A program made the position numbers and the translations under genes. The notes beneath the pieces are model-generated. The model was not told the origin of the DNA. It searched no databases and saw only the letters and a program-made list of their open reading frames with translations. A stretch of 13,855 nucleotides of DNA from Dentipellis sp. KUC8613 (taxonomy: Eukaryota > Basidiomycota > Agaricomycetes > Russulales > Hericiaceae). This document shows, one piece after another, positions 7,979-9,467 of this stretch (positions within the stretch are counted from its first letter, which is position 1; every line of letters starts with the position of its first letter). Location of the stretch: NCBI GenBank assembly GCA_002286715.1, contig NSJX01000155.1:1-13855 (forward strand), given 5' to 3'.

Positions 7979-9467
7979 TGATCGGCTTCATGGTCAAATT
8001 TCCTTCGAATGTCTTGTGGCTGGAATATGAGTTAGTAACGGTATTTAGACACCCGAAGAATGATTTACATCGTGACGCGATACACATTGGTGTCGTCGAC
8101 GAGCCAGATGACCTGATTCGAGAACAGTTCCGAGTAGTTCTGACTGTTGAGGTATGGCTCCGTCGGCTCAGAAGAGTAGAGCTGGAGACCCTTTTGGATG
8201 CGCTCGCGAAGGACAAAGCAGACAGGGTTGGCCTTCATGATCTTCGCCATGGCTTGCTGAATGAGAGGCTTCATGCCAGGGATTTAGTTACCGCAAGCCG
8301 ACCACAAGTTGTACGCCAAATCCATGCCGATCATGGCACCCGTAGGCGAAGGATAGATACTCATAGAATCCGACACCTGGTCGTAGCTTTAGCATCACAA
8401 AGCGGATAATATATTGAAGACGTATGTAGTCCAAGAACTTGGCGCGCGTGTAACGCTCGATGTCGTGCGTGTCGAAATCACCCCAATGAAGCTGCACATC
8501 AATGCAGTACTTGTTACTTGTGGCCCCATCCATGACATCTTTGTTCTACAATTGAAGGAATAGATGAATAGATGGATCAAAAGGAGAAGTATGCATCGAC
8601 TTACGGTGTGACGAGCGACGGACGGGAGATATTCCACTTGTATGCGGAGAATAGGAGAATATCAGCACACGAAGAGTTCATCTTGTAAATCTTTCGAGGA
8701 TGGATTGTCTCCTTCTGTACGGCCTCGATTTGCAACGGCTCGAGCTCCTGATCAAAGACTTGACACTAATCAAGTATGAGTTAGTTCTGTTCATGACGCA
8801 GTATATTACCAAGCGTACCAGATCCATGACGACGCTCTCGTGGACTAGAATCACGAAGGGCGACATTCAGTAGATGCACTTGATAACTAGAAACAACTGC
8901 TTACTCTTCTGCCACAGATGAGCACGGAAGATCTGGATCAAACTGATCTTGAGCGTCGGGATCTTACCGTGCCTAAAGTTGACCTCACAGTCAGAACGGC
9001 ACCGTACACGAAGACGTAATGGTAGGGCTCACATGAAAATACCGGTCAGATCCAGTTGCACCTGGAAATCGACGTAGATGTTGGCGCGGTTGATGGTCGG
9101 ACTCCACCAGGGCGTGAAGCGACGGTGAGGAATCTGGTTCAAACCAGAGCGCTGTGCATTCGTGAGTTTCTTGTACCTCATAGATTCCTCGAATCCGGAC
9201 GCCTTCTCCCATAAAAGACCTTCCCAGGTCGGGAAGTACGTTCCCTTGAAAAGTGTGTGCTCCAAAATGCCCTCGACACCGCCTAGGGCAGCGATGACAT
9301 CCACACGGTAGTTGTTGAGCTGCCACAGTTTTCCATCGTGACGTTGAGATGTCCACCAGAAGGGATTGCTGCGAAAGTGGTTAGCCAACCAACCTTGATA
9401 AAAGTCATAGCAATGAACATACTGCTTCAATAGCTGATACTGCTTCCAGTCGGTGCGCACACGCCAG
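7979..9467 (-). pseudogene. prp8: Internal fragment of the spliceosomal protein Prp8
   Basis: Eight exons can be placed: 9467-9423, 9368-9033, 8972-8905, 8844-8819, 8765-8605, 8545-8426, 8376-8069 and 8019-7979. They spell, in order, [129 protein letters not shown] and HKTFEGNLT. This is the region of the reverse-transcriptase-like core and following linker; the N-terminal third and the RNase-H-like and Jab1/MPN ends are absent. Prp8 holds the U5 snRNP active site and is normally essential and nearly invariant. Damage: a one-base loss near 8537-8541 (DVMDG frame), a TAA at 8286-8284 where GNWFPG is expected, a donor GTACGT changed to ATACGT at 8425, and unusual residues such as WWSP preceded by P and an H for R in QLRWGD. 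Other introns remain splice-competent, so this is a genomic, not a retroposed, copy. It begins and ends inside introns. Confidence 0.93.

What the first reader, a model, noticed from the sequence alone, without database searches (positions are those of the whole stretch)
7979..9467. Decaying genomic fragment of Prp8 inside a transposon cluster
Prp8 is normally single-copy, essential and among the most conserved proteins. Here about 340 codons of its core survive with introns in place, so the copy arose from DNA and not from mRNA. Both ends fall in introns, next to a gypsy LTR and a hAT gene, suggesting capture or segmental duplication linked to transposons. Many exons are still near-perfect, so the event may be fairly recent. 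Transcripts of it could yield small RNAs matching the parental gene, which is inference.
Basis: partly seen in the sequence, partly recalled or inferred. Interest (0 to 1): 0.75.

Follow-up and report, generated by a model that had tools for sequence, protein, structure and literature searches.

The report
Dead fragment of spliceosome gene prp8
A mushroom-group fungus carries a broken, intron-containing piece of its essential splicing gene prp8 in a small transposon-rich contig; it is an ordinary gene relic cut off on one side by a retrotransposon, and it may come from a version of the gene that still worked for part of its separate history.

Summary
Window 7929-9468 (minus strand) is 93% identical to C139:473189-474731, the only other prp8 locus found in the genome. 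It spans 368 codons matching human Prp8 residues 1436-1803, with 7 whole introns and most of an eighth, so it was copied as DNA. It is dead: truncated at both ends, a TAA, a 1-nt deletion, one lost splice donor. One stated detail is wrong: only the left end lies in an intron. The right end is inside an exon, exactly at the terminus of a 393-bp LTR, so an LTR element inserted into a once longer copy. The left junction shows no recognisable element end, and the junction was found once in the genome, so capture by a transposon is not supported. Introns differ by 10.4%, exons by 5.2%. Replacement changes are about half of those expected for a copy dead since it split off; this suggests its lineage stayed under selection for roughly half its history, as a divergent allele, functional duplicate or introgressed gene. 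Small-RNA silencing is untested. An ordinary duplicated pseudogene; low interest, with that one open question.

The parts
7929..7978 (-). truncated intron h of the prp8 fragment (left end of homology)
   Evidence: alignment to C139 intron 473184-473238, whose last 5 bases are missing here; 8 of 50 sites differ
7979..8019 (-). exon h (parental HKTFEGNLTTKPI)
   Evidence: alignment to C139 exon 473239-473279
8069..8376 (-). exon g, with in-frame TAA at 8284-8286 in place of a conserved Trp
   Evidence: Trp in 80 of 99 homologues covering the site
8426..8545 (-). exon f; the splice donor that follows it (8425) is changed from GT to AT
8605..8765 (-). exon e, with a 1-nt deletion near its end (about 8606), a frameshift
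8819..8844 (-). exon d, unchanged
8905..8972 (-). exon c
9033..9368 (-). exon b, most of the U6-snRNA-interacting domain
9423..9468 (-). exon a, cut at 9468 by the LTR terminus
9469..9861 (-). LTR of a gypsy-type element (TGT...ACA on the + strand), by position its 3' LTR, same direction as prp8
   Evidence: 393-bp copies at 95% on C150 and C78; the C150 solo copy is flanked by 5-bp duplications GAAAG
9779..11116 (-). end of the gypsy polyprotein frame: integrase core, Tf2-1-like SH3, chromodomain; the upstream part of the element was not seen
   Evidence: Pfam (the integrase core match is below its curated cut-off); sequence shared with other repeats of the genome begins near 11041
4232..7817 (-). 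hAT-like transposase gene pieces; only the C-terminal dimerisation domain (4232-4651) is called, the rest is inferred from adjoining frames; single copy in the genome by DNA search

Best explanation
A segment of prp8 of unknown original length was duplicated as DNA, with introns, to a transposon-rich place. A gypsy-type LTR element later inserted into an exon of that copy (shown by the exact LTR terminus), a separate non-homologous break joined the other side to unrelated DNA next to a hAT gene (inferred, as no element end was recognised there), and everything beyond was lost from view. The rest decays by point mutation, partly by CpG loss. It makes no working Prp8 and most likely does nothing (inferred).
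For: 93% DNA identity over 1,543 aligned columns to the gene on C139, introns included. Two loci with the domain PF10596 in the genome; the stretches of the C139 gene on either side show no second prp8 copy, and PF08083 is matched on C139 only. Three inactivating lesions plus both truncations. At 20 of 21 differing residues (stop and frameshifted codon included) the C139 residue is the commonest among 120 listed homologues, so the window side changed. LTR terminus exact, with 5-bp duplications around another copy. CG changed to TG/CA (C139 to window) in 19 dinucleotides against 6 the other way, p=0.015, unpolarised.
Against: The partner of the target duplication and the rest of the copy are missing, so the order of events is inferred. 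The contig ends at 13,855, so the larger setting is unseen. The parental gene contains 1,265 N's and could not be read whole.
Confidence: 0.87

Rival explanations
1. The copy descends from a prp8 that was itself functional for part of its separate history (a divergent allele, a complete duplicate, or a gene introgressed from a related species) and only later was cut up and died. This refines the best explanation more than it opposes it.
For: dN 0.028 against silent divergence 0.112 (introns) and 0.117 (dS); dN/dS 0.24, bootstrap 0.13-0.41. A copy dead from birth should show about 44 replacement changes at equal rates; 22 are seen. The replacement share, 22 of 56, is below the 0.558 expected, p=0.015. 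Estimated dead share of its branch 0.51, 0.28-0.86 by bootstrap. To keep it dead from birth the live gene would have to evolve about three times faster at silent sites.
Against: No outgroup DNA, so silent changes are not polarised; equal rates are assumed; only 22 replacement changes; with the lower bound of intron divergence the test is marginal (p=0.045). Silent divergence is uneven along the fragment, which may mean gene conversion.
Confidence: 0.45
2. A transposon (Helitron, hAT or LTR element) captured the prp8 piece and carried it here.
For: It sits between a hAT gene and an LTR element; [quoted passage not shown]
Against: The LTR ends exactly at the fragment, so the fragment lies outside it. 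Comparing 3961-4260 with 7781-8000 gave no 12-mer inverted pair with 10 or more matches; direct 8-mers did match (best GACAACGTA at 4163 and 7969, exact over 9), but 7969 lies inside prp8 homology that runs on to 7929, so it marks no element end. The left junction and the hAT region occur once in the genome. Helitron ends were not searched for.
Confidence: 0.06
3. Assembly or haplotype artefact: C47 is a misassembled allele of the real gene.
For: The window is a whole small contig of 13,855 bases.
Against: The rest of prp8 that could be searched has no second copy in the assembly; the fragment carries three lesions and joins cleanly to an LTR terminus. Read depth could not be examined.
Confidence: 0.04
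4. The fragment gives RNA (for example read-through from the LTR, which points into it in the sense direction) that silences or tunes the parental gene.
For: Orientation: the LTR element and the fragment lie on the same strand, so read-through would be sense.
Against: No expression data; sense RNA alone is not a source of antisense small RNA; silencing an essential gene would be costly (general knowledge).
Confidence: 0.03

Closest known systems
Duplicated (non-processed) pseudogenes of fungi, as surveyed in yeasts by Lafontaine and Dujon (PMC2876123, abstract and outline seen)
   Same: Degraded copy of an existing gene, formed by duplication; functions essential in one species can be affected.
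   Different: Here an intron-rich basidiomycete gene, partial, and cut by an LTR element; whether it is subtelomeric is unknown.
Transposon-carried gene fragments (Helitrons of Pleurotus, PMC4289320, abstract and outline seen; Pack-MULEs, recalled)
   Same: Intron-bearing gene piece among transposons.
   Different: No element ends were found to enclose the piece, and no second copy with the same ends was found.
Short Prp8 gene models in other basidiomycetes (Ceratobasidium sp. AG-Ba, Mycena amicta; listing)
   Same: Partial Prp8 proteins annotated on large contigs.
   Different: Not examined here beyond the listing; they may be gene-model errors.

Membership tests
Duplicated (non-processed) pseudogene | Introns of the parent retained | tested here: met
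   7 whole introns and 50 bases of an eighth align to the C139 gene
Duplicated (non-processed) pseudogene | Inactivating lesions | tested here: met
   TAA, 1-nt deletion, donor GT to AT, both ends truncated
Duplicated (non-processed) pseudogene | A conserved, presumably functional parent elsewhere in the genome | tested here: met
   C139 gene: tblastn pieces cover human residues 14-327 and from 709 to near the C-terminus, with 1,265 N's between; exon-by-exon openness was checked only over the duplicated stretch; expression not testable
Duplicated (non-processed) pseudogene | Neutral evolution since duplication | tested here: inconclusive
   replacement changes are half of those expected if dead from birth
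Processed (retro)pseudogene | Intron loss | tested here: not met
   introns present
Transposon-captured gene fragment | Fragment lies between the ends of one element | tested here: inconclusive
   Not met for the LTR element, whose terminus at 9469 leaves the fragment outside it; no hAT end recognised between 3961-4260 and 7781-8000; Helitron ends not tested
Transposon-captured gene fragment | More than one copy with the same ends | tested here: not met
   left junction found once in this genome

The most novel reading that the evidence does not exclude
This genome's lineage once held a second, diverged prp8 that worked for part of its separate history (a functional duplicate, or a gene brought in by hybridisation) and is now reduced to this relic, which would make it a rare case of a lost second core-spliceosome gene.
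Probability: 0.2. Interest if true: 0.4.

Novelty: new member of a known kind. Interest (0 to 1): 0.17.

Why it matters
Mostly as a caution: gene sets may count it as a second Prp8. If the selection estimate holds, it dates the death of a copy of a very constrained eukaryotic gene to well after its split, which would point to an allelic, hybrid or duplicate origin and can be tested with relatives' DNA.

Tried and rejected
Element ends at the hAT/prp8 junction: one search compared 3961-4260 with 7781-8000 only; no inverted 12-mer with 10 or more matches. Direct 8-mers with 7 or 8 matches exist (20 shown), the best an exact 9-base match at 4163 and 7969; it lies within prp8 homology, not at its edge, and about one exact 8-mer is expected by chance in a comparison of that size (my estimate, no call). 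One search listed the 25 longest of 117 inverted pairs in 3400-8100; none pairs these two flanks.

Other prp8 pieces in the genome: none found; a 107-bp match on C2 and a 105-bp match on C92 fall at the low end of the query, beyond the last Prp8 protein match. Rfam on the whole window: 0 matches at gathering score.

Gene conversion as the cause of uneven divergence: introns b-e 12 of 232 sites against 33 of 202 in the other four (p=0.0002; the grouping was chosen after seeing the values), CUSUM permutation p=0.002, but synonymous changes differ less (16 in exons b-e, 592 bp; 17 in exons f-h, 469 bp), so left open.

Papers: titles listed (3 of 3; 15 of 46; 5 of 5; 2 of 2; 10 of 52; 6 of 35) show none about a Prp8 gene fragment; only listings were seen, plus abstract and outline of two papers. 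In one search two of three comparisons failed because a file name was wrong; they were run. At codon 306 the changed residue cannot be assigned to a branch.

Full report
What is there. The window is a whole contig (C47, 13,855 bases) of a 34.1-Mb genome in 171 contigs. The best match to its kinase-like gene is from Dentipellis sp. KUC8613 (96% over 77% of the query), a member of the Hericiaceae, Russulales, so the genome is probably from that neighbourhood; the species is not established. Bases 7929-9468, minus strand, align to C139:473189-474731 at 93%. Pfam calls the protein of the parental stretch U6-snRNA_bdg and the start of PRP8_domainIV; it corresponds to residues 1436-1803 of human Prp8 (3jcr_A).

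Parent gene. C139 is the only other locus with PF10596 and the only one with PF08083. The stretches 470499-473188 and 474732-477233 next to the duplicated part have no second copy apart from two hits of 107 and 105 bases at the edge of the first query. The gene is matched by tblastn pieces over human residues 14-327 and from 709 to near the C-terminus, with 477234-478498 reading N between. I checked exon borders and open frame only over the duplicated stretch. I treat it as the working gene, with those limits.

Anatomy and lesions. Exon borders were set by eye on the C139 gene from GT-AG sites and protein matches. The fragment keeps part of exon a, exons b-h, introns a-g and 50 bases of intron h. 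Of 15 splice-site dinucleotides examined (8 donors, 7 acceptors), 14 are kept and one donor is GT to AT. There is a TAA in place of a Trp codon at 8284-8286 and a 1-nt deletion at the end of exon e.

Ends. On the right, a 393-bp LTR starts at 9469. A solo copy on C150 has the same ends, TGT...ACA, between two GAAAG duplications, so 9468/9469 is an exact insertion point; in the parent it is inside the exon for LAYDRGWRVR. The element's integrase-to-chromodomain frame lies in the minus direction; its upstream part was not seen, so the far half of the prp8 copy and the second target duplication cannot be examined. On the left, homology ends 5 bases before the end of intron h. In a limited comparison of the hAT flanks no inverted ends were found; an exact 9-base direct match (4163 and 7969) lies inside the prp8 homology and so is not an element boundary. 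The hAT region is single copy and the junction was found once.

Divergence. Introns differ at 45 of 434 sites (10.4%), exons at 57 of 1,106 (5.2%), with three single-base deletions in the window copy. Of 56 coding changes counted, 34 are synonymous and 22 change the residue or make a stop (the codon with the deletion, with one further change, was left out). At 20 of 21 differing residues, including the stop and the frameshifted codon, the parental residue is the commonest among 120 listed homologues; codon 306 is the exception. So replacement changes lie essentially on the window side. With the transition share seen in introns, random mutation would give 71.7% replacement changes; a copy dead since the split, at equal rates, should have about 44, against 22 seen (p=0.0002 at the point estimate, 0.045 at the lower bound of intron divergence). 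A test on the share alone gives p=0.015. The dead share of its branch is 0.51 (0.28-0.86). This suggests, without outgroup DNA, that the two copies first diverged as functional sequences. CG to TG/CA differences exceed the reverse, 19 to 6 (p=0.015; unpolarised), as expected for an unconstrained copy; this is not enough to claim RIP.

Uneven divergence. Introns b-e differ less than the other four, and a CUSUM permutation test gives p=0.002. Gene conversion is one reading; synonymous sites support it only weakly.

How it works. Shown: DNA-level copy, lesions, LTR insertion point. Inferred: the copy was longer; a non-homologous break made the left end; no function. The LTR element points into the fragment in the sense direction, so read-through transcripts are possible but untested.

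Comparison. It is a duplicated pseudogene fragment, a common kind. Short Prp8 gene models also turn up elsewhere: 904 of 1,534 candidates passed E 0.001 in a search limited to proteins of 0.55-1.75 times the query's length, 120 were listed, and these include Ceratobasidium sp. AG-Ba and Mycena amicta on large contigs. Many listed entries are unnamed pieces, often from short contigs, so this says nothing firm about how often real Prp8 duplicates occur.

Noticed in passing
window 1793-4006: Another duplicated stretch: 83% identical to C122:31447-33715, and parts 71-79% (one 37-bp piece 89%) to C2:760826-762419; no Pfam domain in the three frames tested.
   Followed up: partly
window 9029-9751 (-): An open frame of 240 codons runs from the LTR through exon a, intron a (whose parental in-frame stop is absent here) and exon b; no Met codon precedes the Prp8 part.
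   Followed up: no
window 4-744 (-): Kinase-like gene piece 96% identical over 77% of its length to Dentipellis sp. KUC8613 hypothetical protein DENSPDRAFT_862057.
   Followed up: partly
window 11898-12440 (+): Tc5-type transposase DNA-binding domain; a 63-bp stretch at about 11530-11592 matches C93 at 97% in the opposite orientation to a longer match nearby, as terminal inverted repeats would.
   Followed up: no
window 7267-7530: 12-bp tandem repeat inside the presumed N-terminal part of the hAT gene, coding Ser-Arg-Ala-rich repeats.
   Followed up: no
G000:C139:477234-478498: 1,265-base run of N inside the parental prp8 gene.
   Followed up: no
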